Shown piece after piece: positions 815-43,110 of a DNA stretch of 64,000 nt. The notes under the pieces were generated by a model. It saw only the letters and a list, made by a program, of their open reading frames with translations, was not told the DNA's origin and did not search any database. The position numbers were made by a program, and so were the translations under genes. Origin of the DNA: Agathobaculum butyriciproducens. Its GTDB lineage: Bacteria > Bacillota > Clostridia > Oscillospirales > Butyricicoccaceae. The first letter of the stretch is position 1. Every line of letters begins with the position of its first letter. The stretch covers positions 434,001 through 498,000 of the forward strand of contig QEKJ01000001.1 of NCBI GenBank assembly GCA_003096535.1. Reading direction: 5' to 3'.

Positions 815-1490
815 TGAGGGGATTTCGCCTGCGAGGCGAACGGAACTGCGCTGACGCCGCGCGGGCGCACAAGAGGGTAGACAACCTGCGGTTTTCCACC
901 CTCTTGTAAATCTCCCCTTTTCCCTTAGAGGGTCTGGCGCAGATTGCCGACATGTGACCGCTGCGAAAATGGGAAACGGCAGTCGGGTTACCACAGCGTG
1001 TCTTTCTCCGCCTTTTCGCAGTTCACAGATAGCGTACTGCTACACAGACGGTTTCGTCTGCGCAGGCGCGGCACAAGGTGAATTGCCCGCAGGGCAAGAG
1101 AGGGTCCCCTGGGGGATAACCGTGCCGCACGATTCGTTAGCGCGTTGTTACAGACAAGGCCTGCGAAGATAAATTGTGCCAAACGCCTAATCCGTAGGTG
1201 CCGTGCGTAAACTCCAGATTAACGAATTGCGCAACACGGTCATGTTGCGCCTGCGTAGATTTAGCCGTATGTGTAGCAGTACGTTATCTGACACTGCGAA
1301 TCGGTTGAGAAAGACACGGAAGAAAAAATCCTCTGCCGTACTCTTATTTTCGAAGCGGTCGCCGCTCTCCGATTTTCGCCGAGTTAAGAAATAAAGGAAA
1401 CTGGAGTCCCAAGAGGATAGAAACCTTGGTGTCTATCCTTTTGGAACCCCAGCTAAGGGTTAGCACCCATTCATCATTCTTTAGGAAACC
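815..1490 (+). repeat. Long palindromic intergenic element, copy 1
   Basis: A non-coding stretch of about 0.67 kb whose left part (about 930-1075) is an imperfect reverse complement of its right part (about 1245-1400); both arms carry CTGCTACACA and GCAGGCGC. The core at about 1068-1190 holds nested hairpins (GCCCGCAGGGC, GTCCCCTGGGGGA) and the words ATTCGTTAGCGCGTT and GATAAATT. Each end is a hairpin with an 8-10 bp stem around AGAGGGTAG or AGAGGATAG. The same arms, core and ends recur at 8105-8830 and 42390-43060. The small ORFs inside are not conserved as protein. The right end runs into the last codons of phoR. Confidence 0.8.
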
Positions 1491-3123
1491 GCAAAGTAAT
1501 GCAAGTCCCCTCGCCGAGCGCACTCTTCAGCTCAACCTCCGCATGATGCAGTGCCGCACCATGCTTGACAATCGAAAGCCCCAGTCCGGTGCCGCCGGTC
1601 ATCTTGCTGTGGCTTTTATCCACGCGGTAGAACCGCTCAAACACGCGCTGCTGATCCGCCGGCGCGATACCGATGCCGGTATCCGCCACCTGCACGAACG
1701 GTCGCCCGCTCTCCGTGCCGGTCGTAAGCGTCACGCTGCCCTGCGGCTTATTATAATTGATGGCGTTATCCGTCAGATTGAAGATCATCTGCTCGAGCGT
1801 GCGGCGCTGACCAGAAACCGCAGCCGGTTCTCCCTCGATGCGCAGCGCGATGCCCTTGCCTGCTGCCTTGCTCTGCAGACGGTCGCGCACGGTATCACAA
1901 AGGGCGGACAGCTCCACCGGCTCAAAAGCCACTGTTTCTCCGCCTTCATCCAGCCGGGACAGGTGAATGATATCCTCGATGAGCGCCAGCAGCCGCTGCG
2001 CTTCCGTGCGGATCTTGCCCGCAAACGGCGCCACGTCCTCCGGCTTGGCAATGCCGCCCGCGATGATTTCCGCGTAACCCATGATGCTGGTCAGCGGCGT
2101 TTTCAGTTCGTGCGACACATTGGCTGTAAATTCCTGCCGCTGCTGCTCGGCACGCTCGCGCTCGGTAATATCCACGATCAGCAGCACAGCAGCATGCCAT
2201 GCGCTGTTCTCCTCCACCGAGCTTGCCGTAAGTTCATAAATGCGGCCGTTCCGCTCAAGTTTGCCGTGCGCGCCTTTGCCGTCGAGCGCCTGCTCGACCA
2301 CCTGAATGTAATTCGCATCGCGGCACAGCGTCAGATAGCTGCCTTCCGCACTGTCATGCGGGAACAGCGCCCGCGCAGCGTGATTGGCGAACAGAATCAT
2401 GCCCTTGCCGGAAAACAGTACCAGACCTTCATCCATACGGGCCGTAATGTCGTCAAACTCAGCCTGACGGCGCTGCAGCTCGTCCATCTGCGCCTGAATT
2501 TTGTGGTTCTGCTTGTCCATGCGGTGCAGCAGCGGCGACAGCTCGTCATAGGCTTCGCCCTTCATCGGCTCATGCAGGTCGAGCGCTTCGATCGGCTTGA
2601 GGAACAGACCGGTCAGCCAGCCTGCCAGCACAGCTGCAACCAGCAGCGCCAGCAGGATGATCAGCACAATCCACGGTGACGCATTCGACAGTGCGCCGAA
2701 CACGCTGTCCGCAGTTGCGGAAATGCGCAGAATATCGCCGTTTTTCAGACGGACCGCGTAATAAAACGTCTGCTCAGCGAAGGTTTCGGACAGACGGTTG
2801 TCCTCGCCCGTGCCGTTCTTCTCTGCCGCCGCAATCTCCGGACGGACGGCGTGGTTCTCCATCTCGGAGGCATTCGTGCGGTTGTCGTACAGCACAGTGC
2901 CATCCTGCGCGACCAGCGTCAAACGGTCGGCGTACACCGAGCCGCACTCCTCCAGTTCCTCCCGAATGTCATCCGCCGCAGACAGGTAGCTGCTCTCCGT
3001 TATCAGCCGCTGCCGCATATCATTGGTCAGACCGGCGTGAACTGCCAGCAGCAGCAGCCCGGTCGTCAGCAGCAGCGTGACAAGCGACGTGAGAAAAATG
3101 CTGCCGAATACGCGCTTTCTCAT
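1474..3123 (-). CDS. phoR: Phosphate-regulon sensor histidine kinase PhoR
   Basis: Membrane histidine kinase of 549 residues, partner of the adjacent PhoB. Two membrane segments (about 8-30 and 148-173) flank an extracytoplasmic domain. A PAS-like region (about 220-320) follows, then the dimerisation domain with phospho-acceptor His338 in HELKTPL, the N box near 449-457, DTGIGIA at 481-487 and GGTGLGLS at 510-517. The start overlaps the phoB stop as ATGA, so translation is coupled. It is the last gene of pstSCAB-phoU-phoB-phoR. Its stop codon lies inside sequence shared with palindromic-element copy 3, so the final residues may come from the element. The PhoR assignment rests on context and domain order. 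Confidence 0.93.
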   Translation of the reverse strand: MRKRVFGSIFLTSLVTLLLTTGLLLLAVHAGLTNDMRQRLITESSYLSAADDIREELEECGSVYADRLTLVAQDGTVLYDNRTNASEMENHAVRPEIAAAEKNGTGEDNRLSETFAEQTFYYAVRLKNGDILRISATADSVFGALSNASPWIVLIILLALLVAAVLAGWLTGLFLKPIEALDLHEPMKGEAYDELSPLLHRMDKQNHKIQAQMDELQRRQAEFDDITARMDEGLVLFSGKGMILFANHAARALFPHDSAEGSYLTLCRDANYIQVVEQALDGKGAHGKLERNGRIYELTASSVEENSAWHAAVLLIVDITERERAEQQRQEFTANVSHELKTPLTSIMGYAEIIAGGIAKPEDVAPFAGKIRTEAQRLLALIEDIIHLSRLDEGGETVAFEPVELSALCDTVRDRLQSKAAGKGIALRIEGEPAAVSGQRRTLEQMIFNLTDNAINYNKPQGSVTLTTGTESGRPFVQVADTGIGIAPADQQRVFERFYRVDKSHSKMTGGTGLGLSIVKHGAALHHAEVELKSALGEGTCITLRFPKE

Positions 3124-3803
3124 GTGTGCTCTCCCATACGGTAGCCGACACCGCGGACAGTCTCGATCAGCGCACCGTCCGCGCCCAGCTTTTGCCGCAG
3201 CGTACGGATATGCACATCGACCGTGCGGGTTTCACTTTCATTATTATAGCCCCAGATATTCTCGAGCAGCACATCGCGCGTGAGCACAGCACCGCGTTTT
3301 TTCATCAGCAGGCACAGCAGCTGGTACTCCTTGAGCGTCAGCTGCACCTCCTGCTCGTTAACGAATACGGTGTGGGCCCGCTCATCCACACAGATGCCGC
3401 CGGCTACCAGCGGACGCGGCTCATCCTTGCCCTGCATATCCTCGGTGCGGCGCAGGACCGCACGAATGCGCGCGATCAGCTCCATCATGCCGAACGGCTT
3501 GGGAATGTAATCGTCCGCACCGGTGTCCAGACCGACTACCTTGTCGTACTCCGTGTTTTTCGCAGTCAGCAGAATGACCGGAACCCTCGCCGTATCCGGT
3601 GCTGCGCGCAGACGACGCAGAATGGTGATACCGTCCTCGCCGGGCAGCATGATATCCAGCAGAATCAGCTGCGGTTTGCATTTTTTCAGAGCAGCCGTCA
3701 ACGCCGCACCGTCCTCGAAGCCGTCAGCCTCAAAACCGGTGTTGCGCAGTGTATACACCACCAGTTCGCGGATACCCGCATCATCTTCCACACAGTATAT
3801 CAT
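3120..3803 (-). CDS. phoB: Phosphate-regulon response regulator PhoB
   Basis: OmpR/PhoB-class response regulator of 227 residues. The receiver domain (1-120) has the acidic pair at 7-8, phospho-acceptor Asp50 in LLDIMLPG and conserved Lys102. The C-terminal winged helix (about 130-225) shows the class pattern VQLTLKEYQLLCLLM and ENIWGY. It should bind Pho-box direct repeats such as those before pstS. The start follows CGGAG; 20 nt separate it from phoU and it overlaps phoR by 4 nt. Within this operon PhoB/PhoP is the safe reading, although other PhoB-class regulators look alike. Confidence 0.95.
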   Translation of the reverse strand: MIYCVEDDAGIRELVVYTLRNTGFEADGFEDGAALTAALKKCKPQLILLDIMLPGEDGITILRRLRAAPDTARVPVILLTAKNTEYDKVVGLDTGADDYIPKPFGMMELIARIRAVLRRTEDMQGKDEPRPLVAGGICVDERAHTVFVNEQEVQLTLKEYQLLCLLMKKRGAVLTRDVLLENIWGYNNESETRTVDVHIRTLRQKLGADGALIETVRGVGYRMGEHT

Positions 3804-3823
3804 ATATTACACTCCGATTTCTG

Positions 3824-4492
3824 TCAGCGTGCCGCCGCTTCCGCGCCGTGCATTGCACTTTTATGCGAGCCGGTGATGGAAAACTCCACCCATTCGGCAA
3901 TATTGGTCGCGTGGTCGCCGATACGCTCCAGATACTTGGCGATCATCAGCACATCGAGTACGCGCTCGCCGTCCTCCGGGTTCTGCGCGATCTCCGCGAT
4001 GAGGTCGCTCTTGCACTCGTCAAACAGGCGGTCTACCACGTCATCATATTCAATAACGCTCCATGCAAGGGTCAGGTCACGGCGGACAAACGCGTCCAGG
4101 CTGTCGGTCACCATTTTAATGGTTGCCTGCGCCATCTGGTCGATATGCGTGTTGTGACCGCACGCACCGGACAGATACGTTACAATCTCCGCAATATCGC
4201 TTGCCTGATCACCGATACGCTCGATATCCGTGATCATTTTCAGCACGGAGGAGATCAGACGCAGATCGCTTGCCACCGGCTGCTGCTGCAGCAGCAGCTT
4301 GAGGCACATGGACTCGATTTCGCGTTCCTTGCGGTCGATCTCCTGATCGATGCGGATGGCGGCCGCCGCCAGCTTGATATCGCCCTCAAGCAGAGCCTTT
4401 ACCGCACTGGCGATTGCGTTTTCGCACAGTGCTCCCATCGAGATCAGCTCATTGTTCATCTCCGCAAGCTGATTGTCAAAACGGTTTCTCAT
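3824..4492 (-). CDS. phoU: Phosphate signalling protein PhoU
   Basis: PhoU links the Pst transporter to the PhoR kinase and represses phosphate uptake and signalling when phosphate is ample. The 222-residue product is all-helical with two tandem three-helix PhoU repeats. It begins [16 protein letters not shown] and contains the metal-binding patterns DIERIGDQASDIAE and YLERIGDHATNIAEW. The length matches the family. The start overlaps the pstB stop by one nucleotide, so the two are translationally coupled. It is placed between pstB and phoB, as in many Firmicutes. Confidence 0.97.
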   Translation of the reverse strand: MRNRFDNQLAEMNNELISMGALCENAIASAVKALLEGDIKLAAAAIRIDQEIDRKEREIESMCLKLLLQQQPVASDLRLISSVLKMITDIERIGDQASDIAEIVTYLSGACGHNTHIDQMAQATIKMVTDSLDAFVRRDLTLAWSVIEYDDVVDRLFDECKSDLIAEIAQNPEDGERVLDVLMIAKYLERIGDHATNIAEWVEFSITGSHKSAMHGAEAAAR

Positions 4493-5250
4493 TAGCCGAA
4501 CCTCCCCGTAATGTAGTCTTCCGTGCGCTTGTCCGACGGCATGGAGAACAGCTTTTCGGTGTCATCCACTTCGATCATGTCGCCAAGCAGGAAGAATGCG
4601 GTCGTATCCGAAACACGGGTGGCCTGCTGCATATTATGCGTTACCATAACGATAGTATAATCCTTTTTGAGCTCGAGCACAAGGTCCTCGATCTTCGCGG
4701 TGGAGATCGGATCAAGCGCAGAGGTCGGCTCGTCCATCAGCAGCACCTCCGGGTCTGCGGCAAGCGCACGCGCGATGCAGATACGCTGCTGCTGACCGCC
4801 GGACATGGACAGCGCGGATTTTTTGAGGTTATCCTTGGTCTCCTCCCAGATAGCGGCACGCTTGAGCGAAGTCTCGACGATCTCGTCAAGCTGCACACGG
4901 CTCTTGATGCCGTGCGTGCGCGGACCATAGGCGATGTTATCATAAATCGACATCGGGAACGGATTCGGCTTCTGGAATACCATGCCGACACGGCGGCGCA
5001 GCAGATTGACGTCACAGTTCTTGTAGATATCCTGACCGTCAAGCATGATATCGCCCGTGATACGGCAGTTTTCCACCAGATCGTTCATGCGGTTGAGCGA
5101 ACGCAGCAGCGTAGACTTGCCGCAGCCGGACGGTCCAATGAATGCGGTGATCTCATTCTCCTTGATATCCAGATTGATATCGTGCAGGGCGTGAAAATCA
5201 CCGTAATGCAGATTCATATTATGAATTTCGATCTTATTTTCCATGTTCAT
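4492..5250 (-). CDS. pstB: Phosphate ABC transporter ATPase PstB
   Basis: ATP-binding subunit of the high-affinity phosphate importer, 252 residues. Walker A is GPSGCGKST (39-47), the signature is [10 protein letters not shown] (about 147-156), Walker B is VLLMDEP (about 169-175), and the switch histidine lies in MVTHNMQQA. The [16 protein letters not shown] segment is typical of PstB. It should dimerise and couple to PstC/PstA at the inner face of the membrane. It lies 7 nt after pstA and overlaps phoU by one nucleotide. Confidence 0.98.
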
Positions 5251-5257
5251 TCTCCAT

Positions 5258-6139
5258 TTACTTCTTGGTCAGCTTTTTCGCTGCCAGAGCGGAAAGCGTA
5301 TTCATCAGCAGGACCACCAGCAGCAGAACGACTGCAGTAGCATTTGCCTCGTTCATGTGCAGCGCCTCACCCGAGAGCACATACATGTGGATGGCCAGCG
5401 TACGGCCGGACTGGAACAGACCGGGAATCTGGGCCATAGTGCCTGCGGTAAAGATGAGCGCCGCGGTCTCACCGACGATGCGGCCGATACCAAGGATAAC
5501 ACCGGACAGAATGCCGGGACCCGCAGCAGGCAGCACGATGCGGAATATCGTGCGCAGACGTCCAGCGCCCAGACCGAACGAGCCTTCGCGGTAGGAATCC
5601 GGAACCGCCATCAGCGCTTCCTCAGCGGTACGCATGATGAGCGGCAGGATCATGATCGCCAGCGTCATCGCACCGGCCAGCAGCGAGTATCCCCAGTGCA
5701 GCCTGGTGACGAAGAACAGCATGCCGAACAGGCCGTACACAATGGATGGAATGCCGGAAAGCGTCTCGGTCGTGATGCGGATGACGTTTACCAGCTTGTT
5801 GCCGCGCTTGGCGTACTCATTCAGGTACACGGCGGTGAACAGGCCGAGCGGCACAGCCAGCAACAGTGCCAGCGCGGTCGTTTCAACCGTAGTGAGGATG
5901 GCAGGCATCATCGAGACGTTCTCAGAGGTATAATTCCACTGAAACAGCGACGGCTTGAGATGCGGAATGCCCGTCACCAGAATATAGCCGAGCAGGAACA
6001 GCAGTACCGCAAAAGTCAGCATAGCCGCGCCGTACACCAGACCCTTGAGCACAGCCGCAGATGCGGCGCCGTGCACCTTTCCGGTCTTTGCCTGTACGCG
6101 CACTGCCGGTTTTGCAGCAGAGACAGCTTCTCTTGTCAT
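5258..6139 (-). CDS. pstA: Phosphate ABC transporter permease PstA
   Basis: Membrane permease of 293 residues, one half of the PstCA channel. After a charged N-terminal tail there are about six membrane helices, with the coupling motif [25 protein letters not shown] spread over residues near 170-195. The start overlaps the pstC stop by four nucleotides. The PstA-type N-terminal helix preceding [10 protein letters not shown] separates it from PstC. Confidence 0.96.
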
Positions 6140-7002
6140 GCTTCCTTCCTCCTTTTGAGAACCGAGAATGCCAGATTGATGAGCAGAATGAATACGAACA
6201 GCACAACGCCGGTCGCAATAAGCGCCTCACGGTGCAGGCCGGTGGCGTAGCCCATCTCAAGCACGATGTTTGCCGTCATGGTGCGGATGCCCTTGAGCAT
6301 GCTGCCGGTCAGCCGCGGCTGGTTGCCCGCTACCATGATAACCGCCATGGTCTCGCCGATGGCGCGGCCGATGCCGAGCACGATGCCGGCCAGCACGCCG
6401 GACTTGGCAGCCGGTACCATAACCGTGAATATCGCGCGCTCATGCCGTGCGCCCATGGCGACGGCGCCCTCGTAGTAGCTCATCGGAACCGCACGCAGCG
6501 CCGCTTCGGACACGCCGATAATGGTCGGCAAAATCATAATGCCGAGCAGGATGGACGCCGCCAGGATGGACGAGCCGGAAATATCCGCTCCGAACACACC
6601 TGCCACCGCACGAACTGCCGGTACGATAATGACCATGCCGAAGAAGCCGTATACGATGGACGGAATACCGGCCAGCAGTTCGGTGCACGGCTTGAGCAGA
6701 CCGTACAGCTTTTTCGGACAGTAGAATGCCATGAATACCGCCGTCAGCAGACCGATCGGCACGCCGATAACGATCGCACCGGCGGTGATGTACAGGCTGC
6801 CGAGGATCATCGGCAGGATGCCGTAAATGTCGTTGCCCGGCTTCCACTTTGCGCCGGTGAGGAAGTCCAGCAGGCCAATCTCCTTCATGGCAGGCACACC
6901 GTTCGCAAACAGGAAAATACAGATGAGCACCACCGCGAAGATGGAGGTCAGTGCACAGAGGAAAAATACCATGTGCATCAGGTTTTCCCGAAAGTTTTTC
7001 AT
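6136..7002 (-). CDS. pstC: Phosphate ABC transporter permease PstC
   Basis: Membrane permease of 288 residues that pairs with PstA. It has about six helices and the EAA-type loop EAALRAVPMSYYEGA in the cytoplasmic coupling region; [11 protein letters not shown] is the hallmark shared by the PstA/PstC pair. It begins MKNFRENLMHMVFF and follows a good AGAAAGA-type ribosome site. It is separated from pstS by 66 nt that hold a hairpin (7025-7046), which may protect the pstS transcript and give more PstS than permease. Confidence 0.96.
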   Translation of the reverse strand: MKNFRENLMHMVFFLCALTSIFAVVLICIFLFANGVPAMKEIGLLDFLTGAKWKPGNDIYGILPMILGSLYITAGAIVIGVPIGLLTAVFMAFYCPKKLYGLLKPCTELLAGIPSIVYGFFGMVIIVPAVRAVAGVFGADISGSSILAASILLGIMILPTIIGVSEAALRAVPMSYYEGAVAMGARHERAIFTVMVPAAKSGVLAGIVLGIGRAIGETMAVIMVAGNQPRLTGSMLKGIRTMTANIVLEMGYATGLHREALIATGVVLFVFILLINLAFSVLKRRKEA

Positions 7003-7024
7003 AAATCTTTCTCCTATACAGGCA

Positions 7025-7046
7025 CAGGGCGAATCACTTCGCCCTG
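7025..7046 (-). other. Intercistronic hairpin between pstS and pstC
   Basis: CAGGGCGA and TCGCCCTG form an 8-bp perfect stem with a six-base loop. No U-run follows on the coding strand, so it is more likely an mRNA-stabilising or processing element than a terminator. Such stems often raise the level of the upstream binding-protein transcript. Confidence 0.6.
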
Positions 7047-7068
7047 TTTTATCAGTCTGTGAATTCGC

Positions 7069-7971: not shown

Positions 7972-8014
7972 AATTAGTTCTCCTTTTACATTCGTCTTCG
8001 TTTTTTGTTACAAG

Positions 8015-8044: not shown

Positions 8045-8055
8045 AAGCGAGAGTT

Positions 8056-8102: not shown

Positions 8103-8104
8103 AT

Positions 8105-8970
8105 ACGGATTTTCGCCTGCGATTCAGCGGGAGTTGCGCTCTGCGGAGCGCAGGAACGTGCGGCGCCCGCCGCAGGGGCAAAAAGGAAGGGACACCTGCG
8201 TTTTCCCTTCCTCTTTGAACTCCTGCCTTTCCCTTGGATAGTCTGGCGCAGATTGCCGACATGTGACCGCTCTGAAATAGGGGAACGGGAGCGGATTTTT
8301 TCTACCGTGTTTTTCGTAACCTGTTCGCAGTGTCAGATACATTACTGCTACACATGTGATTTCATCTAAGCAGGCGCGGCACAAGGTGAATTGCCCGAAG
8401 GGCAAGAGAGGGTCCCCTGGGGGATAGCAGTGCCGCGCAATTCGTTAGCGCGTTATGATAGACAGCACCTACGAAGATAAATTATACCAAACGCCTAAAT
8501 TCGCAGGTGCCTTCCGGTATAACGCGCAAAAAAATTGCGCGGCACTGTCATGCCGCGCCTTGCGCAGAGTAGCCCGTATGTGTAGCAGTACGCTATCTGT
8601 GAACTGCGAATATTTTACGAAACAAACGCAAGAGTATCCCGACTGCCGTTCCCCTATTTCTGAGCGGTCACATATCGGCAATCTGCGCCAGACTCTCCCC
8701 AAAGGAAGTGGGAGTTAAGAGGGTAGAAACCTTGGTGTCTACCCTCTTGCCCCGCCGCGGGGCGCGGCACGCTCCCGCCGCGGGGGCGGCGAATCCCCGC
8801 GCTCCGCAGAGCGCAACTCTCCGCTGAGGTTCAGCAAAAAAGACTGCCGCCCGGACAGGGTGAACCGCCCGTGCGGTTCAAGTACCCCGCTGGGTCGGTG
8901 CAGAAAAGGAGCCGCCCGTCAGGGGCGAACACGCTAACGCAGTTCGTATGCCCCGCCGAGTCAGTGCCGA
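8105..8970 (+). repeat. Long palindromic intergenic element, copy 2, with GC-rich tail
   Basis: Second copy of the palindromic element, same orientation as copy 1. Left arm (about 8235-8385) and right arm (about 8545-8700) are imperfect inverted repeats sharing GCGCCAGAC/GTCTGGCGC, CTGCTACACA and GACCGCT. The core (about 8375-8500) repeats copy 1 nearly word for word, including GGTGAATTGCCCG, GAGGGTCCCCTGGGGGATA and ATTCGTTAGCGCGTT. The right end is the AAGAGGGTAG hairpin (8718-8752), followed by a GC-rich tail to about 8970 with further small inverted repeats that recur at 43010-43110 and 48930-49090. No convincing gene lies in 7972-9009. Confidence 0.8.
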
Positions 8971-8971
8971 G

Positions 8972-9003
8972 AAAAAAAGAGAACCCTCTCACGAAGGTTC
9001 TCT
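8972..9003 (-). terminator. Terminator after the O-antigen-ligase-like gene
   Basis: GAGAACCTTCGTGAGAGGGTTCTC followed by seven T residues on the minus strand, directly after the stop of the gene at 9010: a canonical intrinsic terminator, given here by its parts (stem GAGAACC/GGTTCTC). Confidence 0.85.
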
Positions 9004-28984: not shown

Positions 28985-29006
28985 ACTAACACTTTTAGAA
29001 AATATT

Positions 29007-29173
29007 ATAGGCAATACCGCATAATTGAACAAGAGTGATTTGCGAGTAAATTTTGCGTACTGACGAGGCACAGTTTTGCGGTAATACTTGATGTATTACC
29101 GTGAAACTGCAACAAAGTCAGGACACAAAATTTCCGCAAAGCACCGCCGCTTTAATTGTGCGGTGTTGCCTAT
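29007..29173. mobile_element. MITE-like palindromic element of 167 bp
   Basis: ATAGGCAATACCGCA at the left end matches the reverse complement of TGCGGTGTTGCCTAT at the right end, and pairing continues inward (AAATTTTGCG/CAAAATTT, GCGGTAATAC/GTATTACCG) so the whole unit can fold back. It has no ORF. Outside bases suggest a TATA or TA target duplication. This is the build of a miniature transposable element moved by a transposase elsewhere. The gap 28648-29255 otherwise holds only the short palindrome and the promoter at 29191. Confidence 0.7.
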
Positions 29174-29190
29174 ACTGCGTTATTCTCAAT

Positions 29191-29255: not shown

Positions 29256-30701
29256 ATGCACCACCGCCGACCGGCTGCGCCGCACAGCCACCGTCCCAAT
29301 CACAGACAGATCAACCGCCTGATGCCGTTCACGACGGCGCCGCTGTTCCATGCTCTGCAGCTGCTCGAGACCGGCGACTCCGCGCGGTTTCACATGCCCG
29401 GTCACAAGGGTGAGCCGGTTTTCAACACATACGCGGATATTTTTGCCATCGACTTTACCGAAACCTACGGCACCGGCAACCTGTACACCGGCGAAGGTCC
29501 TATCCGCGATGCAGAGGTTGCCGCCGCGCGGTATTTCGGCTCGGAGGACTGCTTTTTTCTGACCGGCGGCTCGACACAGGGCATTCTCGCTATGCTCGGC
29601 ACAGCGGTCGGACGCGGCGGCGCTGTCCTGCTCGACCGTGAGGTACACAAGTCCGTCTGCTACGGCTGCGCGCTGCTCGGCATTACGCCGTATTTCTTTT
29701 CTGCACCGCTGATCGAGCCATTCGCGGTTTCCGGCGCGCTTCCGGTCAAGGATGCGGAAGCACAGCTGATTGCGCATCCGGAGATCAAGGCAATCCTTCT
29801 GACCTCTCCGACCTATTACGGCATCCGGCGGGCGATTCCTGAGTTTGCCGATCTGTGCCGCGCGCACGGCAAGCTGCTGCTCGTAGACGGTGCACACGGT
29901 GCACACTTCCCTGCCGTCGGCCTGCCGACGCCGGTCGCGGAAGGTGCGGATATGGCCGTGCTCTCCATGCACAAAACGCTGACGTGCATGGGACAGGGCG
30001 CCGTTCTGCTCTCCGCGGCAGGCGTGGACCGCCGCGCGCTGCGCGAAAACACCATGCTGTTCGGCACATCCAGTCCGTCCTATCCCATTATGGCATCCAT
30101 TGACCTTGCGCGTGCCTACACCGAGGGGCCCGGTCACGCGGAGTACCGCCGCTCGGCGGAAACCTGCGCCGAACTGCGTGCCTATGTGCAGCACCGAACC
30201 ATGTTCACCGCACTGACCGAGGATCATTTTCCGGCGCTTGACCCATGCCGTCTGACGGTGTGCACCGCCGGAACCGACATCACCGGTCACCAGCTGGCCG
30301 ATACGCTGTGGAGCGAATGCGGCGTGGCGTGCGAGATGGCGGACGACCGCAATGTTGTGTTCATCCTCACCGGCTCCGACCCGAACGGTGCGATCAGCCG
30401 TCTGAAACGCGGTCTGCGGCGCATTTCCAGACGGCGCGAGCTGATTCCCCTGCCGTCCCTGTCCGCACCGTTTCCGCCCGCCGAGCGCGTGATGAGCGTG
30501 CGCGACGCATGGTTCTCACAGACCGGCAGAGTCCAGCCTGCCGCTGCCGAGGGTCTGGTCTGCGCCCGTCCGGTCACGCCGTATCCGCCCGGTGTGCCGC
30601 TGCTCTGGCCCGGCGAGAAAATTACAGGAGCGCACATTGCACTTATCCGTGAAAGATGGTACAATACAATAGATGAAATAACCGTTGTTGTCCATCAATA
30701 A
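29256..30701 (+). CDS. Orn/Lys/Arg decarboxylase-family PLP enzyme (YaaO-like)
   Basis: A 481-residue fold-type I PLP enzyme. ARFHMPGHKGEPVF, FGSEDCFFLTGGSTQGI and the PLP Lys in VLSMHKTLTCMGQGAVL mark the major domain; the C-terminal Orn/Lys/Arg decarboxylase domain (about 400-481) ends with VTPYPPGVPLLWPGE. The ATG follows GAGGAG. Members decarboxylate basic amino acids for polyamine synthesis; the exact substrate is not readable. In Bacillus the homologue yaaO precedes tmk-yaaQ-yaaR-holB-yaaT. Here darA follows directly, so tmk and yaaR are missing from the string. Confidence 0.88.
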   Translation: MHHRRPAAPHSHRPNHRQINRLMPFTTAPLFHALQLLETGDSARFHMPGHKGEPVFNTYADIFAIDFTETYGTGNLYTGEGPIRDAEVAAARYFGSEDCFFLTGGSTQGILAMLGTAVGRGGAVLLDREVHKSVCYGCALLGITPYFFSAPLIEPFAVSGALPVKDAEAQLIAHPEIKAILLTSPTYYGIRRAIPEFADLCRAHGKLLLVDGAHGAHFPAVGLPTPVAEGADMAVLSMHKTLTCMGQGAVLLSAAGVDRRALRENTMLFGTSSPSYPIMASIDLARAYTEGPGHAEYRRSAETCAELRAYVQHRTMFTALTEDHFPALDPCRLTVCTAGTDITGHQLADTLWSECGVACEMADDRNVVFILTGSDPNGAISRLKRGLRRISRRRELIPLPSLSAPFPPAERVMSVRDAWFSQTGRVQPAAAEGLVCARPVTPYPPGVPLLWPGEKITGAHIALIRERWYNTIDEITVVVHQ

Positions 30702-36712: not shown

Positions 36713-36726
36713 GAGGTTCACCTCCC

Positions 36727-36876: not shown

Positions 36877-36906
36877 AAAAGGGCAGATTTCTCAATCTGC
36901 CCTAAT
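36877..36906 (-). terminator. Terminator of nifS-nifU
   Basis: GGGCAGATTGAGAAATCTGCCC followed by TTTTGG on the minus strand (stem GGGCAGATT/AATCTGCCC), 30 nt past the nifU stop. Confidence 0.82.
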
Positions 36907-36936
36907 GTTATGCGTATTTTTTGCGGAATATGCGTG

Positions 36937-37371
36937 TTAGTCTGCCTTGTGGCAGGTCTCACAGTCTGCATCGCAGCCGAGAATCTCCGCCGGGTCCTTG
37001 CCCAGACGCTTGTAATAGTCAGAAATTGCAGAGCGCAGCGCTTCCTCTGCCAGCACGGAGCAGTGCATCTTTACCGGCGGCAGACCGTCCAGAGCCTCAG
37101 CAACGGCCTTGTTGGTCAGCTTGAGCGCTTCCTCCAGGCTCTTGCCCTTTACCATCTCGGTAGCCATCGAGCTGGTTGCGATTGCCGCGCCGCAGCCGAA
37201 GGTCTTGAACTTAACATCCTCGATGATGCCGTCGTCCGACACCTTGAGGTAAATCTTCATAATATCGCCGCACTTTGCGTTGCCGACCTCGCCGACACCG
37301 TTTGCGTCCTCAATCTCGCCAACATTGCGCGGATGCGTAAAGTGGTCGAGCACCTTTTCACTGTACTGCAT
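36937..37371 (-). CDS. nifU: Fe-S cluster scaffold protein NifU/IscU
   Basis: A 144-residue IscU-type scaffold, start MQYSEKVLDHFTHPRN after AAAGGAG. The cluster ligands are visible as Cys in VGNAKCGDIM, Cys in FGCGAAIA and Cys in KMHCSVLAEEA, with Asp in CGDIM. A C-terminal CDADCETC tail adds further cysteines, as in many Clostridia. It receives sulfur from the cysteine desulfurase encoded just upstream. The gap between the two genes holds a GC palindrome. Confidence 0.95.
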   Translation of the reverse strand: MQYSEKVLDHFTHPRNVGEIEDANGVGEVGNAKCGDIMKIYLKVSDDGIIEDVKFKTFGCGAAIATSSMATEMVKGKSLEEALKLTNKAVAEALDGLPPVKMHCSVLAEEALRSAISDYYKRLGKDPAEILGCDADCETCHKAD

Positions 37372-37424
37372 AAAATCTATCTCCTTTTTGTCCAATCAAA
37401 TGAATATATTGCAGGAAAATCAAT

Positions 37425-37470
37425 CGTAGGGCGCGACGACCCCGGCGCGCCGAGTCGTCGCGCCCTACGG
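37425..37470. repeat. Short GC palindrome between nifS and nifU
   Basis: CGTAGGGCGCGACGAC and GTCGTCGCGCCCTACG form a 16-bp stem, the longest member of the family also seen at 27498. As there, it sits inside an operon. Confidence 0.78.
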
Positions 37471-37488
37471 GATACGTTTCCGCTTATC

Positions 37489-38730
37489 TTAATGTGCGTG
37501 CAGCTCGGTTGCAGCGGTCAGGTTAGGATGACCGTTCTCCCAAACCGGGCTCATCGAGCGCAGGGTCTTAACAACATCGGTGACCGTCTCGATGATATAA
37601 TCAACGTCCTCCTCGGTGTTCTGCTCGCCAAGGGTCAGGCGCAGAGAGCCGTGCGCGATCTCGTGCGGCAGACCGATCGCCATCAGAACATGAGACGGAT
37701 CGAGCGAACCGGTGGAGCATGCCGAACCGGTGGAGCCGCATACGCCTGCGTTATCCAGTCGCAGGATCAGGCCCTCGCCCTCAATCGCCTCAAAGACGAA
37801 CGAAGCGGTGCCCGGCAGACGGTTTACCGGATCGCCGGTATAGTGGGAGTACGGAATGTTCTCCATGATGCCCTTAACGAGCTTGTCCGTCAGCTTCTTG
37901 ACGTAGCCCATCTTCTCATCCAGGCCTTCAACGGCCTCCTTCATCGCTGCCGCCAGACCGATGCAGCCTGCGGTGTTCTCGGTACCGGAAACCAGACCGC
38001 GCTCCTGACCGCCGCCGTATACCAGCGGCTCAAGGGTGATGCCCTTTTTCACATACAGCACGCCGGTGCCGCGCGGACCGCGGAACTTATGACCGGACAG
38101 GGACAGCATGTCGATGCCCATCTCCTGCACGTCAATGTGCATATGGCCAACAGCCTGAACCGCGTCGGTGTGGAACTTTGCGCCAACCGAATGCGCCAGC
38201 TCGGCAATCTGCTTGATCGGCTGAATCGTGCCGATCTCGTTGTTTGCCGCCATAACGGAAACCAGTGCGGTGTCCTCAGACAGCTCTGCTTTCAGCTGCT
38301 CAAGATCTACACGGCCTTCCTTATCCACATTCAGATAGGTAACGCGGTAGCCTTCCTTCTCAAGCGCCTCGCAGGTGTAAAGCACTGCATGATGCTCGAT
38401 CTTGGAGGTGATGATGTGCTTGCGGCCCTTGGAAGACGGACCGTGCATAAAGCCGCGGATCGCAAGGTTGTCCGCCTGCGAGCCGCCGCCGGTGAATACA
38501 ATCTCACCCGGTGCATAGTCGTTCTTCTCGTTGACCGGCTCTGCCGCGTTCAGGCACTTGCCGACAACGGTACGCGCATCGTTGAGCGCTTCCTTTGCCG
38601 CACGGCCGATGCGGTACAGAGAGGACGGGTTGCCGTAGTTCTCGGTCAGCCACGGCTTCATAGCGTTGAACGCAGTTTCGGACATCGGGGTCGTCGCCGC
38701 GTTATCCGCATATACAAATCTCTTTTCCAT
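37489..38730 (-). CDS. nifS: Cysteine desulfurase NifS/IscS
   Basis: PLP enzyme of 413 residues that takes sulfur from cysteine for Fe-S assembly. The start MEKRFVYADNAATTPMSE follows GAAAGGCAG. Motifs: the PLP Lys in LSGHKFRGPRG, HTDAVQAVGH, and the sulfur-carrying Cys in CGSTGSACSTGSLDPSHVL near 335. It is co-transcribed with nifU. The promoter has a palindrome between -35 and -10, suggesting Rrf2/IscR-type control. No rrf2-family gene is in the window. Confidence 0.96.
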   Translation of the reverse strand: MEKRFVYADNAATTPMSETAFNAMKPWLTENYGNPSSLYRIGRAAKEALNDARTVVGKCLNAAEPVNEKNDYAPGEIVFTGGGSQADNLAIRGFMHGPSSKGRKHIITSKIEHHAVLYTCEALEKEGYRVTYLNVDKEGRVDLEQLKAELSEDTALVSVMAANNEIGTIQPIKQIAELAHSVGAKFHTDAVQAVGHMHIDVQEMGIDMLSLSGHKFRGPRGTGVLYVKKGITLEPLVYGGGQERGLVSGTENTAGCIGLAAAMKEAVEGLDEKMGYVKKLTDKLVKGIMENIPYSHYTGDPVNRLPGTASFVFEAIEGEGLILRLDNAGVCGSTGSACSTGSLDPSHVLMAIGLPHEIAHGSLRLTLGEQNTEEDVDYIIETVTDVVKTLRSMSPVWENGHPNLTAATELHAH

Positions 38731-38839
38731 AGTATATCTGCCTTTCTTTGTCCAAAAAGGTTGTCTTAAACACAAGCTGAACAGACGGTTTTCGACGCGC
38801 GAAAACCCGAGTAAAATGATAGGTTCAGCGGGTACTATT

Positions 38840-38869
38840 AATATACACCCGAAACGGGTATTTTAGCAA
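38840..38869 (-). promoter_or_regulatory. nifS-nifU promoter with embedded palindromic operator
   Basis: TTGCTA (38869-38864), 18 nt, TATATT (38845-38840). ACCCGAAACGGGT (38847-38859) lies in the spacer, a perfect 5-bp inverted repeat around AAA, where a bound repressor would block polymerase. Confidence 0.65.
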
Positions 38870-38960
38870 GTGAAAAACTGACGAAACAGCACGCATATCC
38901 TGCTGCATTTTGCATTAGTTTGTGCATTTTGTGTAGTTTTATAAGGAGGTTAGCTTTGTT

Positions 38961-39971
38961 TTACCGGTGCGTGTGCGTATCGAGGCGCTTTTTCAGCCGT
39001 TCGAGCACCTCGGTATAACGCTCGGAGCGGGCGGTCGGGTTGCCGCGCAGCAGGCTCTTGCGGGTGCGGCCGAGTGCGGCTGCCCGCTCGTCAAAGCGGC
39101 GCTGCAGCTCGTCGAGCTTGGCCTGCAGCTGCTCGCGTGCGGCTTCGGTCTGCGCCCTGCGCTCGTCGGAGCGCATCTCATGCACGGCGGCAAGCTGCTC
39201 CTTCGCATCGTCCATTTTCTCGGAGAGCTGCGCTTTCGCGTCGGCAAGCTGCTCCCTGGCATCGTCCACACGCTCGGCAAGCTGTGCCTTCGCCTCGCCC
39301 ACCTTCTCAGTGAATTCGCCGTGCGCTTCCTCTACACGGTAGGACAGGTTTGTCAGACCGACAAGCGCAGTCTCGGACAGCTGCTGTCGCAGCTCGGCTC
39401 CCTGCTCGCGCAAACGGTCGAGTTCCTCGAGCACCTTGGCGAGATCGAGTGCGCTGCGTACGGATACGATCACATCGCTGATAAATGCCGCCGAAAACAG
39501 AACGTCGATCACGATCAACCCGATAAACGGCAGACCGAGCACCAGCTTTTCAATCGGCGGGTGAATGACGCTCGTCAGGATCAGGCCGAGAAAGCCCCAG
39601 CACAGTGACGAGCGCAGGCAGATATAGCCCTGAAACTGGAATCTCTGCTTGGAGTAATCCCAGTATTTTACCTTGAATATCTTCTCCATCACCACACCGA
39701 CAATGTATTCAAACACAGTCGCCGCGATCATGCTCGCCAGATACAGCCACACCGGATGCTGCTTTAACGGCAGAGAAACATGCAGCAGGATCACGGCGCC
39801 GAAGCCGTAAATCGGCAGCATGAGGCCGCGCAGGAAGCCGCGGTTGACCAGTCTGCGCTGTCCTACCGAGACCACGGTGGACTCAAAGCACCAGCCGAGC
39901 ATACAGTACAGGTAGAAAACCAGCAGCCACTGGGCAGCGGAATAACTGTAATACACGCTCTCACTCCTCAT
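38961..39971 (-). CDS. CmpB-family (PF06541-type) membrane protein with long coiled coil
   Basis: A 336-residue protein. The first 180 residues hold about five membrane helices in the 'putative ABC transporter permease' CmpB pattern (LLVFYLYCMLGWCFESTVVS, RGFLRGLMLPIYGFGA, CLRSSLCWGFLGLI). The remaining 150 form a highly charged coiled coil in which an 11-22 residue unit repeats (AKAQLAERVDDAREQLAD, AKAQLSEKMDDAKEQLAA). No ABC partner is nearby, so transport is unproven. Start at 39971, with a weak ribosome site (GATGAG). The promoter overlaps that of the divergent alcohol dehydrogenase. Confidence 0.72.
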   Translation of the reverse strand: MRSESVYYSYSAAQWLLVFYLYCMLGWCFESTVVSVGQRRLVNRGFLRGLMLPIYGFGAVILLHVSLPLKQHPVWLYLASMIAATVFEYIVGVVMEKIFKVKYWDYSKQRFQFQGYICLRSSLCWGFLGLILTSVIHPPIEKLVLGLPFIGLIVIDVLFSAAFISDVIVSVRSALDLAKVLEELDRLREQGAELRQQLSETALVGLTNLSYRVEEAHGEFTEKVGEAKAQLAERVDDAREQLADAKAQLSEKMDDAKEQLAAVHEMRSDERRAQTEAAREQLQAKLDELQRRFDERAAALGRTRKSLLRGNPTARSERYTEVLERLKKRLDTHTHR

Positions 39972-39993
39972 GATTTGGATTTCTCATCTATTT

Positions 39994-40022
39994 ATTCTAT
40001 CGAATTTTTTGACTTTTTGCAA
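39994..40022 (-). promoter_or_regulatory. Promoter of the CmpB-family gene
   Basis: TTGCAA (40022-40017), 17 nt, TAGAAT (39999-39994), interleaved with the divergent promoter at 40009-40037. Confidence 0.65.
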
Positions 40023-40037
40023 GGGGAACGATATAAT
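40009..40037 (+). promoter_or_regulatory. Promoter of the iron alcohol dehydrogenase gene
   Basis: TTGACT (40009-40014), 17 nt, TATAAT (40032-40037), sharing 14 bp with the divergent promoter. Confidence 0.8.
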
Positions 40038-40076
40038 AGAATCATACCATTTTAATAGGAAGGGTAGGAACGCCTA

Positions 40077-41255
40077 ATGCTGAATTTTAATCTGCACACC
40101 ACGACCGAGGTCGTATTTGGCAAAGATATTGAGGAACAGATCGGCCCGCGCCTGAAAGAACTCGGCGCACATCGCATCCTCGTACACTTCGGCGGCTCGA
40201 GCGCCCGCACCTCCGGTCTGCTCGACCGTGTGGAAAAAAGCCTGTTTGCGGCGGGTCTTGCCTTTGTTGAACTGGGCGGTGTATCACCGAACCCGAAGGT
40301 ATCGCTTGTCCGCAAGGGCATTGCACTGGCAGAGCGAGAGGGCATCGACTTTGTGCTGGCAGTCGGCGGCGGCTCGGTAATCGACTCGGCGAAGGCCATC
40401 GCCATGGGCGTTGCCACAAAAACCGATCCGTGGCAGTTTGCATCTACCGGCACAAAGCCGGATACCACCCTGCCGGTCGGCACTGTACTGACGCTGGCAG
40501 CCTCCGGCTCGGAAAGCAGCAACTCCTGCGTACTCACCAATGAGGAGACCAAGGAGAAGCGCGGTATCACGAGCGAGACCAACCGTCCGCGCATCAGCTT
40601 CCTTGATCCGGAGAACACCTATACCGTGTCCAAATTCCAGACCGGCTGCGGCATTGTGGACATCATGATGCACACGCTCGAGCGTTACCTCACGCCGGAA
40701 GGCGGCGAAAGCGACATTACCGACCGCATTGCCGAGGGTCTGCTCATTGCCGTGCGCGATGCCGGCCGCCGCGCTATCGCCAATCCGCGCGATTATGAGG
40801 CGCGTGCGTCCCTGATGTGGGCGGGCAGCGTTTCACATAACGATTACACCGGCTGCGGCCGCAAGCGTCTGTTCCCGGTGCATAAGCTCGAGCATGAGCT
40901 GTCCGCGTTCCGCGATGAGATTGCACACGGTGCCGGTCTGTCCGTGCTGTTCCCGGCCTGGGCGCTGTACGAAATGAAGAACGATTTTCCGCGCTTTGCT
41001 CAGCTGGCGAACCGCGTATTTGGCGTGGAGATGGATTTCCATCATCCCGAGCGCACCGCGCGCGAAGGCATCCTGACCATGAAGCGCTTCTTTGAGGAGA
41101 TCGGCATGCCGACGCATCTGGCGCAGCTGGGCATCAAGCCGGAGAATTACGCACAGCTGGCAGCGAATACCGTCCGCACGGTCAAGGGTCCGGTCAAGAG
41201 CTATTCCGCACTCGACGAACAGGCTATCATCGAGATTTATAAGCTGGCGGAGTAA
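40077..41255 (+). CDS. Iron-containing alcohol dehydrogenase, butanol dehydrogenase type
   Basis: A 392-residue group III alcohol dehydrogenase. NAD binding shows VHFGGSSARTSGLLDRV (about 36-52) and GGGSVIDSAKAIA (about 96-108). Iron ligands are the Asp in CGIVDIMMHTLERY with its His, and the His residues in FPVHKLEHELSAF and DEIAHGAGLS. It resembles NADH-dependent butanol dehydrogenases that reduce aldehydes at the end of fermentation; the substrate is not proven. The gene stands alone with its own promoter and two terminators. Confidence 0.92.
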   Translation: MLNFNLHTTTEVVFGKDIEEQIGPRLKELGAHRILVHFGGSSARTSGLLDRVEKSLFAAGLAFVELGGVSPNPKVSLVRKGIALAEREGIDFVLAVGGGSVIDSAKAIAMGVATKTDPWQFASTGTKPDTTLPVGTVLTLAASGSESSNSCVLTNEETKEKRGITSETNRPRISFLDPENTYTVSKFQTGCGIVDIMMHTLERYLTPEGGESDITDRIAEGLLIAVRDAGRRAIANPRDYEARASLMWAGSVSHNDYTGCGRKRLFPVHKLEHELSAFRDEIAHGAGLSVLFPAWALYEMKNDFPRFAQLANRVFGVEMDFHHPERTAREGILTMKRFFEEIGMPTHLAQLGIKPENYAQLAANTVRTVKGPVKSYSALDEQAIIEIYKLAE

Positions 41256-41348
41256 AACCGCCTGTGCCAAAGACGGTGCAATAAGCGTAACAACTGCGAA
41301 GGGAAGGCTGTGCAGCAGCCGCTCCCTGCAGCCCATCACCAAAACCAT

Positions 41349-41388
41349 AATGACCGCTCGGTACCAGCCGAACGGTCATTTATTTTAT
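41349..41388 (+). terminator. First terminator after the iron alcohol dehydrogenase gene
   Basis: AATGACCGCTCGG and CCGAACGGTCATT pair with one mismatch, followed by TATTTTAT. The hairpin lies 94 nt past the stop. Confidence 0.75.
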
Positions 41389-41403
41389 CCATCTCCGCAA
41401 TTA

Positions 41404-41426
41404 CCGTCCGGTCGGACGTTTTTTTG
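41404..41426 (+). terminator. Second terminator after the iron alcohol dehydrogenase gene
   Basis: CGTCCGGTCGGACG followed by seven T residues. Confidence 0.78.
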
Positions 41427-41506
41427 CTTCGGGGTTGCTCTGAACTGCCGAAGGTGGTAGGATAAAAGCAGCAAAGCTATCGAGAACAAATGAAAGCAGG
41501 GATTTT

Positions 41507-42358
41507 ATGCAAATTGTAGATACCGGCGTACTGACCCCGTCCTTCATGGACTTCTCACTGCCGTCCGAATTTGCGAAAAGCGCGCTGTATTACTGCCCGC
41601 AGTTCGGTCAGTTCATCTGCAACAGCGATTACCGGATCGAACGAAACGGCATTGACCAATACCTGCTGATCTACATCAACAGTGGTTCGCTCTGCATCCG
41701 CACAGACGGTATGACCGCCGAGGCGCATGAGGGCGAAATAGCGCTGTTCGACTGCCGCAAGCCGCACTGCTACTGGTGTCCGGACAAGGTTGACTTCTAC
41801 TGGTTTCACTTCAACGGTGCGGGCAGCAAGCAGTACACCGAATATCTGACCGAGCGATTCGGCCTTGTGCACGAAAAGCAGCCGATGCTGTCGCTCAAGG
41901 ATCAGTTCCGCACGGTCGTGCACTCGGCGCAGTACGGCATGAGCACGCAGTTTGCCTCCATGAACGAGCACCAGATTTCCATTGCGGTACACAGCATTCT
42001 GGGTGGTCTGGCGTCGCAGACCGTGCGAACCACCGTCACCAGTGAGCTGCTTGCACCGGCACTGGCGTACATTCACGGTCATTTTGCCGATGATATTTCG
42101 CTGGACGACCTTGCCGGGATGTGCGGCATCAGCAAATCGCACTTTATCCGCAGCTTCAAGCGATACGTCGGCTGTACGCCGCATGAGTATCTGCTGCAGT
42201 ACCGTCTGCGTCAGTCCAAGCGTCTGCTGCTGTCCAGCGACCTGACCGTTGAACAGATTGCCGAGGACTGCGGCTTCAACAGTGCATCGCACTTTGCGCG
42301 GGCATTCCGGCAGGAGACGGATATTTCGCCAACGGCGTTCCGGGCTATTTCGTTCTGA
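41507..42358 (+). CDS. AraC-family transcriptional regulator
   Basis: A 283-residue regulator. The N-terminal cupin-type effector domain (about 15-135) has YLLIYINSGSLCI and HEGEIALFDCRKPHCYW. The C-terminal pair of helix-turn-helix motifs (about 180-283) has ISLDDLAGMCGISKSHFIRSFKRYVGCTPHEYL and TVEQIAEDCGFNSASHFARAFRQ. Such proteins usually activate sugar-use genes. The symporter and inositol-like genes begin 0.8 kb to the right on the other strand, and this is a fair candidate for their control. The stop lies about 35 bp before palindromic element copy 3. Confidence 0.9.
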   Translation: MQIVDTGVLTPSFMDFSLPSEFAKSALYYCPQFGQFICNSDYRIERNGIDQYLLIYINSGSLCIRTDGMTAEAHEGEIALFDCRKPHCYWCPDKVDFYWFHFNGAGSKQYTEYLTERFGLVHEKQPMLSLKDQFRTVVHSAQYGMSTQFASMNEHQISIAVHSILGGLASQTVRTTVTSELLAPALAYIHGHFADDISLDDLAGMCGISKSHFIRSFKRYVGCTPHEYLLQYRLRQSKRLLLSSDLTVEQIAEDCGFNSASHFARAFRQETDISPTAFRAISF

Positions 42359-42392
42359 TTTTACCATATCAGACGTTATCTGTGTGCTAAAG

Positions 42393-43110
42393 AATACGGA
42401 ATGGGTGCTAACCCTTAGCTGGGGTTCCAAAAGGATAGACACCAAAGTTTGCCCGTAGGCCACTAAACCTTGTTCCCGCGCCGTGCGCGGATTAAACGAG
42501 TACTATCCTCTTGGGACTCCAGTTTCCTTTATTTGTTTGTCTGGCGAAAATCGGAGAGCGGCGACCGCTTCGAAATTTGGGAACGGCAGTCGGGTGACCG
42601 TTGCGAGTCTTTCTCCGCCTTTTCGCAGTTCACAGATAACTTACCGCTACACAGGCGGTTTCATCTCAGCAGGCGCGACATACCCGTGTCGCGCAACTCG
42701 TTAGTCTGGATATGACAGACAGCACCTGCGAATTTATCTATTTAGAACCGTTTAGCCGCGCAGGTGCTTTCTATTACCACGTGCCGACAAATTGTGCAGC
42801 ACTGCTATGCCGCACCTTGCGTTGATGAAACCGTATGTGTAGCAGCAAGGTATCCGACCCTTCGAATAGGTTGAGAAAGACACGGTAGTAAAAATCCTCT
42901 GCCGTTCCCCTATTTCGGAGCGGTCGCCAGTCTCTGGTATGCGCCAGACTAAGAAATAAAGTGAAACGGGAGTTAAGAGGGTAGAAACCGCAGGTGTCTA
43001 CCCTCTTGCCCCCGCCGCCGAGCGCGGCAAATCCTCTCGCTGAGGTTCAGCGAAAAACACCCCGCCCGTTCGGGCGAACCGCCTGCGCGGTTCGTGTGCC
43101 CCAGAAAGCC
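42393..43110 (+). repeat. Long palindromic intergenic element, copy 3
   Basis: Third copy. The left end, CTAAAGAAT...GAATGGGTGCTAACCC and GCTGGGGTTCCAAAAGGATAG, is the reverse complement of the right end of copy 1. Its terminal hairpin has an extra 50-bp insert (about 42450-42502) with its own CCGCGC/GCGCGG stem. The arms (about 42540-42690 and 42830-42960) match those of copies 1 and 2. The core lacks the GGTGAATTGCCC...GGGGGATA module and has only CGACATACCCGTGTCG. The right end is the AAGAGGGTAG hairpin (42977-43012) and the GC-rich tail shared with copies 2 and 4. No gene in 42359-43180. Confidence 0.8.

What the first reader, a model, noticed from the sequence alone, without database searches (positions are those of the whole stretch)
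815..43110. Family of long palindromic intergenic elements (three copies)
Stretches at 815-1490, 8105-8830 and 42393-43060 share inverted arms of about 150 bp, a hairpin-rich core, and hairpin ends, yet carry no conserved protein. All three lie between genes, mostly after operon ends. Arms differ by substitutions that often look compensated on the other arm, so selection or copying may keep the fold. They may be a MITE-like element, a large structured RNA, or a DNA fold used by a protein. I know of no named family matching them.
Basis: partly seen in the sequence, partly recalled or inferred. Interest (0 to 1): 0.85.

Follow-up and report, generated by a model that had tools for sequence, protein, structure and literature searches.

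The report
Large folded-back intergenic DNA repeat family
One gut bacterium carries at least 76 scattered, non-coding DNA repeats, many folded back on themselves, that look like passive mobile DNA rather than a new RNA, and the two halves of a copy match each other no better, and often worse, than halves from different copies.

Summary
The three palindromes are real. They belong to a repeat family with at least 113 arm copies at 76 loci in this 2.8-Mb Agathobaculum genome. The inner arm was found in none of 24 congeners and in no other of 394 genomes of the order (coarse). Of the 76 loci, 37 are inverted arm pairs, 34 of them with one of two centre sizes; 39 have one detectable arm. The end hairpin occurs in 20 of 25 genus genomes. 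At one site, 16 of 16 comparable congeners lack the insertion.

The suggested compensated substitutions are not there. Partner arms are less complementary than arms drawn from other elements (z = -4.4), and real elements mostly fold less stably than chimeras. G·U and A·C mismatches are equal, 452:474. Copies lie between genes in every orientation, with no conserved ORF seen and no Rfam match.

Best reading: a new, unusually large composite relative of MITE, BIME or BOX-type repeats, spread as DNA by a mobiliser not found. No Y1 transposase was detected. SbcD, of the nuclease that breaks long palindromes in E. coli, was not detected either.

The parts
803..1507 (.). Copy 1, two-arm foldback element; arms 803-1091 and 1228-1507
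   Evidence: arm alignment of L001, converted to window coordinates; foldback scan; covered by other copies over 816-1495
953..1069 (+). Copy 1, conserved inner part of the 5' arm (model R1)
   Evidence: R1 hit G000:C1:434953-435069 +
1247..1362 (-). Copy 1, conserved inner part of the 3' arm (model R1)
   Evidence: R1 hit G000:C1:435247-435362 -
8107..8982 (.). Copy 2, two-arm foldback element with outer small-hairpin chain; arms 8110-8475 and 8500-8840
   Evidence: insertion absent in 16 of 16 comparable congeners
8262..8377 (+). Copy 2, conserved inner part of the 5' arm (model R1)
   Evidence: R1 hit
8556..8672 (-). Copy 2, conserved inner part of the 3' arm (model R1)
   Evidence: R1 hit
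8383..8426 (+). Side hairpin module (AAGGTGAATTGCCC..GGGCAAGAGAGGGTCCCC..GGGATA) nested in the 5' arm of copy 2; lies in the 5' or the 3' arm in other copies and, diverged, in congeners (for example L074)
   Evidence: position read from the sequence; folds; congener hits on query 253-307; L074
42382..43122 (.). Copy 3, two-arm foldback element between convergent genes; arms 42503-42730 and 42759-42984; one end hairpin carries a nested insertion
42561..42676 (+). Copy 3, conserved inner part of the 5' arm (model R1)
   Evidence: R1 hit
42816..42927 (-). Copy 3, conserved inner part of the 3' arm (model R1)
   Evidence: R1 hit
48821..49115 (.). Fourth relative: outer hairpin chain and one end hairpin, without the long arms
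   Evidence: blastn of 40 elements against the window; end-hairpin pattern hit at G000:C1:482890; no R1 hit there

Best explanation
These are copies of a large, composite, non-autonomous interspersed DNA repeat. The basic unit is an arm of roughly 240-570 bp that carries an end hairpin shared across the genus. Arms occur as inverted, centre-facing pairs with one of two centre sizes (the palindromes) or singly. The long-arm family multiplied in this species' lineage, inserting between genes without regard to their direction. It behaves like MITE, REPIN/BIME or BOX repeats: passive DNA moved by something supplied in trans. Arms look exchanged between copies in short blocks. Their pairing is not maintained; if anything, copies with less perfect pairing persist. 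SHOWN: copy number (lower bound), arrangement, taxonomic limits within the genomes searched, absence from one orthologous site in relatives, lack of arm-to-arm compensation, lack of strand asymmetry. INFERRED: that spread was by transposition, that a trans-acting enzyme did it, and that block mosaicism reflects recombination or conversion.
For: 113 arms at 76 loci in this genome, 0 in 24 congeners (147 candidates scored per genome, so 113 is a lower bound), and no match in any other of 394 genomes of the order (only the 9 best candidates per genome scored, so coarse). The 37 pairs are all + then -, 34 with 134-204 bp between the modelled arm parts (25 at 134-148, 9 at 175-204). The end-hairpin pattern occurs in 20 of 25 genus genomes with 0 control hits; of 65 stretches found in a collection of 84,980 species, 60 carry Agathobaculum titles and 5 are unnamed Eubacteriales. 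Gap upstream of the PstS-like gene: 1043 bp here, 184-379 bp in 16 of 16 comparable congeners. For the genus-level form, the gap between a ThiI-like and a CinA-like gene is filled in 2 of 24 genomes, and 7 of 12 hairpin-free genomes printed have only about 25 bp there. No direction bias. Linkage between biallelic columns falls from r2 0.38 at 2 bp or less to 0.02 beyond 80 bp.
Against: No target-site duplication or exact end could be defined. No transposase sharing the ends was found, and only one transposase family (Y1) was searched. 30 of 32 two-arm copies analysed exceed 670 bp, above the usual MITE size. Long matches to copy 1 are only about 66-79% identical, so no very recent movement is visible. 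The family was seen in one genome of one species, so presence/absence within the species is untested. The empty-site argument for the long-arm family rests on one site.
Confidence: 0.7

Rival explanations
1. A large structured RNA (cis-regulatory, sRNA or terminator) whose fold is under selection.
For: Very stable predicted folds (-333 to -442 kcal/mol for 701-771 nt). Highly conserved blocks such as ACGGCAG and CTGCTACACA.
Against: Stem mismatches are equally G.U and A.C: 452:474 overall, 202:199 on the sense strand of tandem genes. Own partner arm less complementary than random arms (z -4.4); own fold more stable than chimeras in only 6-7 of 30 for columns 81-270. 10 of 40 copies lie between divergent genes. 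No Rfam match in the elements.
Confidence: 0.06
2. A DNA fold or protein-binding array kept by the host (as BIMEs are reported to bind proteins), with copies held for chromosome organisation.
For: 83 of 317 arm columns are at least 95% invariant, in blocks. An end hairpin is shared across the genus.
Against: The long arms were found in one species only, so no conserved host role is implied. Invariant blocks could equally be positions where the founder arms agreed.
Confidence: 0.12
3. No transposition: inverted duplication by template switching at replication forks plus ectopic recombination spread the arms.
For: Arms are block mosaics. Three of 37 pairs have the centre deleted (spacing -11, -10, 11), as expected of hairpin-mediated deletion. 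The family nests small palindromes.
Against: Copies sit at dozens of separate loci with one of two centre sizes. Fork errors make local duplications, not dispersal.
Confidence: 0.12

Closest known systems
Bacterial MITEs (review PMC10969869, passages seen by term search)
   Same: Non-coding, dispersed, intergenic, inverted ends, many degraded copies.
   Different: That review gives a length typically under 500 bp, TIRs of about 4-30 bp and flanking direct repeats in younger copies. Here 30 of 32 two-arm elements analysed span 673-1173 bp, the inverted arms fill nearly the whole element, and no direct repeats were defined.
REP/BIME and REPINs (PMC3116915, passages seen; REP size of 20-40 bp from a passage of PMC4666352; PMC2817692, abstract start only)
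   Same: Unit found as inverted doublets that could fold in ssDNA, plus singlets; random with respect to genes.
   Different: REPs are 20-40 bp and tied to a RAYT (Y1-type) transposase. The arm here is roughly 10 times longer, no Y1 transposase was detected in this genome, and singlets are not less conserved than doublets.
Pneumococcal BOX composite repeats (PMC3049150, passages seen)
   Same: Modular composite intergenic repeats, 67-637 bp, nearly confined to few species, strong predicted folds.
   Different: BOX is boxA-boxBn-boxC with tandem boxB units. Here the grammar is nested and palindromic, with no tandem central unit seen.
Stem-loop repeat families of a survey of 40 genomes, including Bcr1 (PMC2267715, passages seen)
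   Same: Species-limited, mostly intergenic stem-loop families; two models extend over 1 kb.
   Different: 67 of its 92 models are 31-200 bp. This genus was not seen in the passages read.

Membership tests
MITE | non-coding | tested here: met
   no coding-like ORF of 60 aa or more inside any of 40 elements; searches list short overlapping ORFs in the window copies, not compared by search
MITE | inverted repeats at both ends | tested here: met
   37 of 37 arm pairs inverted; end hairpins in opposite orientation in folds. The 39 single-arm loci do not meet it
MITE | short, typically under 500 bp | tested here: not met
   the 32 two-arm elements analysed have repeat segments of 505-1173 bp, 0 of 32 under 500
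MITE | target-site duplication | tested here: inconclusive
   flanks of filled and empty sites too diverged or rewritten to define ends
MITE | ends shared with a transposase-bearing element | tested here: inconclusive
   no end-hairpin pair around a larger interior noticed by eye among pattern hits in 25 genomes; transposase families other than Y1 not searched
REPIN/BIME | inverted doublets | tested here: met
   37 of 37 pairs + then -
REPIN/BIME | unit of about 20-40 bp | tested here: not met
   arms of 237-568 bp
REPIN/BIME | RAYT / Y1 transposase in the genome | tested here: not met
   PF01797: 0 matches in G000; 5 of 25 genus genomes positive, 4 over the cut-off; the control rings in 5 of 14 known genomes
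REPIN/BIME | singlets less conserved than doublets | tested here: not met
   within arm clusters singlet 0.205/0.206 versus doublet 0.217/0.199 mean distance, 91 of 113 arms
BOX-type composite repeat | modular composite of sub-repeats | tested here: met
   end hairpin, arm, side hairpins and outer hairpin chain combine differently between copies, by eye
BOX-type composite repeat | boxA/boxB/boxC sequences | not tested
   no sequence comparison with pneumococcal BOX was run
Structured RNA family | compensatory base-pair changes | tested here: not met
Structured RNA family | match to an Rfam family | tested here: not met
   window at gathering thresholds; six loci up to E 1, whose only hit, below its gathering score, lies outside the foldback of L067 and is implausible
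Insertion sequence | transposase gene inside | tested here: not met
   no coding-like ORF inside 40 of 40 elements examined

The most novel reading that the evidence does not exclude
This is a new class of giant foldback repeat whose arms form a recombining pool across the genome. Each locus holds a mismatched pair of arms because perfect palindromes are purged, and a lineage without detectable SbcD tolerates hundreds of base pairs of near-palindrome at dozens of loci. The folded single strand would be the form that an as yet unknown enzyme moves.
Probability: 0.2. Interest if true: 0.75.

Novelty: new variant of a known kind. Interest (0 to 1): 0.48.

Why it matters
It adds a large, species-limited repeat family to a little-studied gut genus; the 40 loci measured already cover 29.9 kb, about 1.1% of the genome. 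It also gives a worked case in which a spectacular predicted fold is not evidence of a functional RNA: arm-swap chimeras and the G·U/A·C ratio separate selection on pairing from shared ancestry of the arms. If the anti-complementarity and the missing SbcD hold up, the family would be a natural system for studying how bacteria live with long palindromes.

Tried and rejected
RNA function: tested with the mismatch ratio, partner-arm identity, fold of own against chimeric pairs and Rfam; rejected as the best reading. The first chimera tests (own more stable in 2, 3 and 0 of 29) used fixed-length arms and could have been biased by inserts and the asymmetric apex. They were repeated with homologous trimming (2-4 of 30) and without apex or outer parts. 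The effect shrank but stayed for columns 81-270 (7 and 6 of 30) and 151-270 (8 and 8 of 30), and was not significant for columns 81-150 (11 and 13 of 31; P 0.09 and 0.20).

Compensation hidden by two arm types: arms were assigned to types A and B. Within-element A-B identity 0.803, between-element A-B 0.814: no excess. Whole-arm A/B heterodimers were 18 of 31 against 15.1 expected (P 0.27): not significant, although single blocks show an excess and summed over biallelic sites the partners agree in 1387 of 3035 against 1698 expected.

RAYT/REP origin: no Y1 transposase in this genome. Phage or plasmid origin: no match in either collection, none in viral contigs with an inner-arm pattern. An autonomous partner flanked by the end hairpins was looked for by eye in the pattern list and not seen. 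A neighbour gene of copy 3 (43181-44902) was searched in the genus but gave many paralogues and was not used. Paper searches for a published description found none: (open-licence PMC only).

Counts dropped: 8 of 40 elements with short aligned arms were left out (29-31 of the remaining 32 were used in the fold tests). 22 of 113 arms had no held sequence. At the PstS-like site 6 congeners had no upstream gene on the stretch and 2 had no match, so 16 of 24 could be judged. The strict hairpin pattern is negative at that site in all 17 genomes, this one included, so it decides nothing there; the argument rests on gap length and the printed sequences.
Full report
WHAT IS THERE. The three stretches are real, long, imperfect palindromes. 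A foldback scan of the window gave 870-1443, 8124-8827 and 42503-42984 with scores of 44.5, 95.5 and 69. The best foldbacks in 21 stretches of 2300 bp between 10 and 41 kb scored 11.5-24.5. One unrelated palindrome, at 29006-29174, scored 29 in the tiled scan. Predicted single-strand folds are -333, -442 and -355 kcal/mol for 701, 761 and 771 nt. The three are copies of one another and of many others: a search with copy 1 gave 128 matching pieces, although only 40 of 108 candidate places were scored. A fourth relative without the long arms lies at 48821-49115.

COPY NUMBER AND ARRANGEMENT. A sequence-only model of the inner arm (117 positions, 40 arms) found 113 arms in this genome and none in 24 congeners, with 147 candidates scored per genome, so 113 is a lower bound. 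It found none in the other genomes among 394 of the order, but there only the 9 best candidates per genome were scored. The 113 arms fall at 76 loci: 37 pairs, always + then -, and 39 single arms. Of the 37 pairs, 25 have 134-148 bp and 9 have 175-204 bp between the modelled parts; the larger spacing probably reflects the nested side hairpin (inference from folds). Three pairs have the centre deleted. Of the 39 singles, 20 were fetched and 14 printed. By eye, most run from the arm into a different tail, often A+T-rich or pyrimidine-rich with small hairpins, rather than into a second arm.

TAXONOMIC RANGE. The end hairpin is shared across the genus. A degenerate pattern hit 65 stretches in a collection of 84,980 species: 60 titled Agathobaculum and 5 unnamed Eubacteriales. 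The looser pattern hit 20 of 25 genus genomes, with 0 control hits. In congeners the same hairpins flank other interiors.

INSERTION. Upstream of a PstS-like gene (name from my reading of the protein; no family search was run) the gap is 1043 bp here. It is 184-379 bp in 16 of 16 congeners with both genes on the stretch, and the printed gaps show no such element. The strict hairpin pattern was negative in all 17, including this genome's own copy, so it adds nothing here. For the genus-level form, the gap between a ThiI-like and a CinA-like gene (names likewise mine) holds an end hairpin in 2 of 24 genomes, one of the 24 having only 16 bp to look at. Of 12 hairpin-free genomes printed (11 congeners and this one), 7 have only about 25 bp there. 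A PflB-PflA-like gap is a recurrent site: 13 of 22 genomes have the hairpin by the strict pattern. This genome has a short arm pair there that the strict pattern misses. Exact ends and target duplications could not be defined.

CONTEXT. Among 40 copies, neighbouring genes are tandem in 19, convergent in 11 and divergent in 10 (gene calls by codon usage, trained on 34 window ORFs). This does not support a terminator or 3'-UTR role.

IS THE PAIRING SELECTED? Four tests speak against it. First, stem mismatches are G.U 452 against A.C 474 in reference orientation (P 0.49), and 202 against 199 on the sense strand of 19 tandem-gene copies (95% interval of the G.U share 0.45-0.55). Second, the mean identity of an arm to its own partner is 0.803, against 0.82 to arms of other elements, and the own partner is never the best match among 64 arms. 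With arms sorted into two types the figures are 0.803 and 0.814. Third, own-partner identity on a common alignment is 0.659, against 0.698 for random partners (z -4.4, 0 of 2000 shuffles as low). The deficit is absent in the outer part (z 0.4), weak in columns 81-150 (P 0.06) and largest at the apex. Fourth, natural elements fold less stably than chimeras with other arms: more stable in only 7 of 30 (same-type partner, P 0.002) and 6 of 30 (other 3' arms, P 0.0005) for columns 81-270. It was not significant for columns 81-150 (earlier versions gave stronger figures but were open to bias). Elements share ancestry, so these P values are rough.

ARMS AS A POOL. Of 317 arm columns, 83 are at least 95% invariant and 102 carry two common alleles. 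Linkage between such columns decays from r2 0.38 at 2 bp or less to 0.02 beyond 80 bp. At several blocks elements tend to hold both alleles, one per arm; in sum partners agree at 1387 of 3035 biallelic sites against 1698 expected. Whole-arm types show no significant excess of unlike pairs (18 of 31 against 15.1). The simplest account is one or two founder arms that differed, amplification as inverted pairs, and block exchange. Whether the excess of unlike arms is history or purging of perfect palindromes is open.

PALINDROME TOLERANCE. A search with the SbcD model found no match in this genome at E 0.001 or better. One of 25 genus genomes is over the cut-off and 16 others have only weak matches. 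The control search rang in 13 of 14 known genomes, but over the cut-off in only 8, so a diverged SbcD could be missed. [quoted passage not shown]). The link to this family is a hypothesis.

RELATION TO KNOWN KINDS. It works most like MITE, REPIN/BIME and BOX repeats. It is not filed as a MITE (size not met, duplication undefined) or a REPIN (unit size and Y1 transposase not met). It is a new variant of the broad kind 'composite palindromic intergenic repeat'. No description was found, which cover open-licence PMC only.

VERDICT. A genuine, apparently undescribed, unusually large repeat family. It is very probably passive mobile DNA, not a new RNA. Moderately interesting; the anti-complementary arms and the missing SbcD are the parts worth following.

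Noticed in passing
window 29006-29174: An unrelated palindrome with arms of about 80 bp upstream of an ORF starting at 29256; not covered by matches to the family.
   Followed up: no
L220, L227 (variants in L234, L236; congeners): A different recurring intergenic palindrome (GACGCTGTCCCCCTTAGATACG..AAAAAGTTCC) occupies the same gene gaps in other congeners.
   Followed up: no
L250-L268 (single-arm loci): Tails after single arms often carry CCGTAGGGTGCG..CGCACCG and CCGTAGGGGCGG.. hairpins and repeated ATTCTCCATTTTC-like pyrimidine-rich stretches, several next to likely terminators.
   Followed up: partly
PflB-PflA-like gene gap, L201-L222: 13 of 22 genomes hold an end hairpin in this gap by a strict pattern, with different interiors and both orientations: an insertion hotspot.
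   Followed up: partly
window 52356-52523, - strand: Rfam L10_leader match (RF00557), the only Rfam hit in the window at gathering thresholds.
   Followed up: no
G000 and 24 congeners: SbcD model over its cut-off in only 1 of 25 genus genomes.
   Followed up: partly
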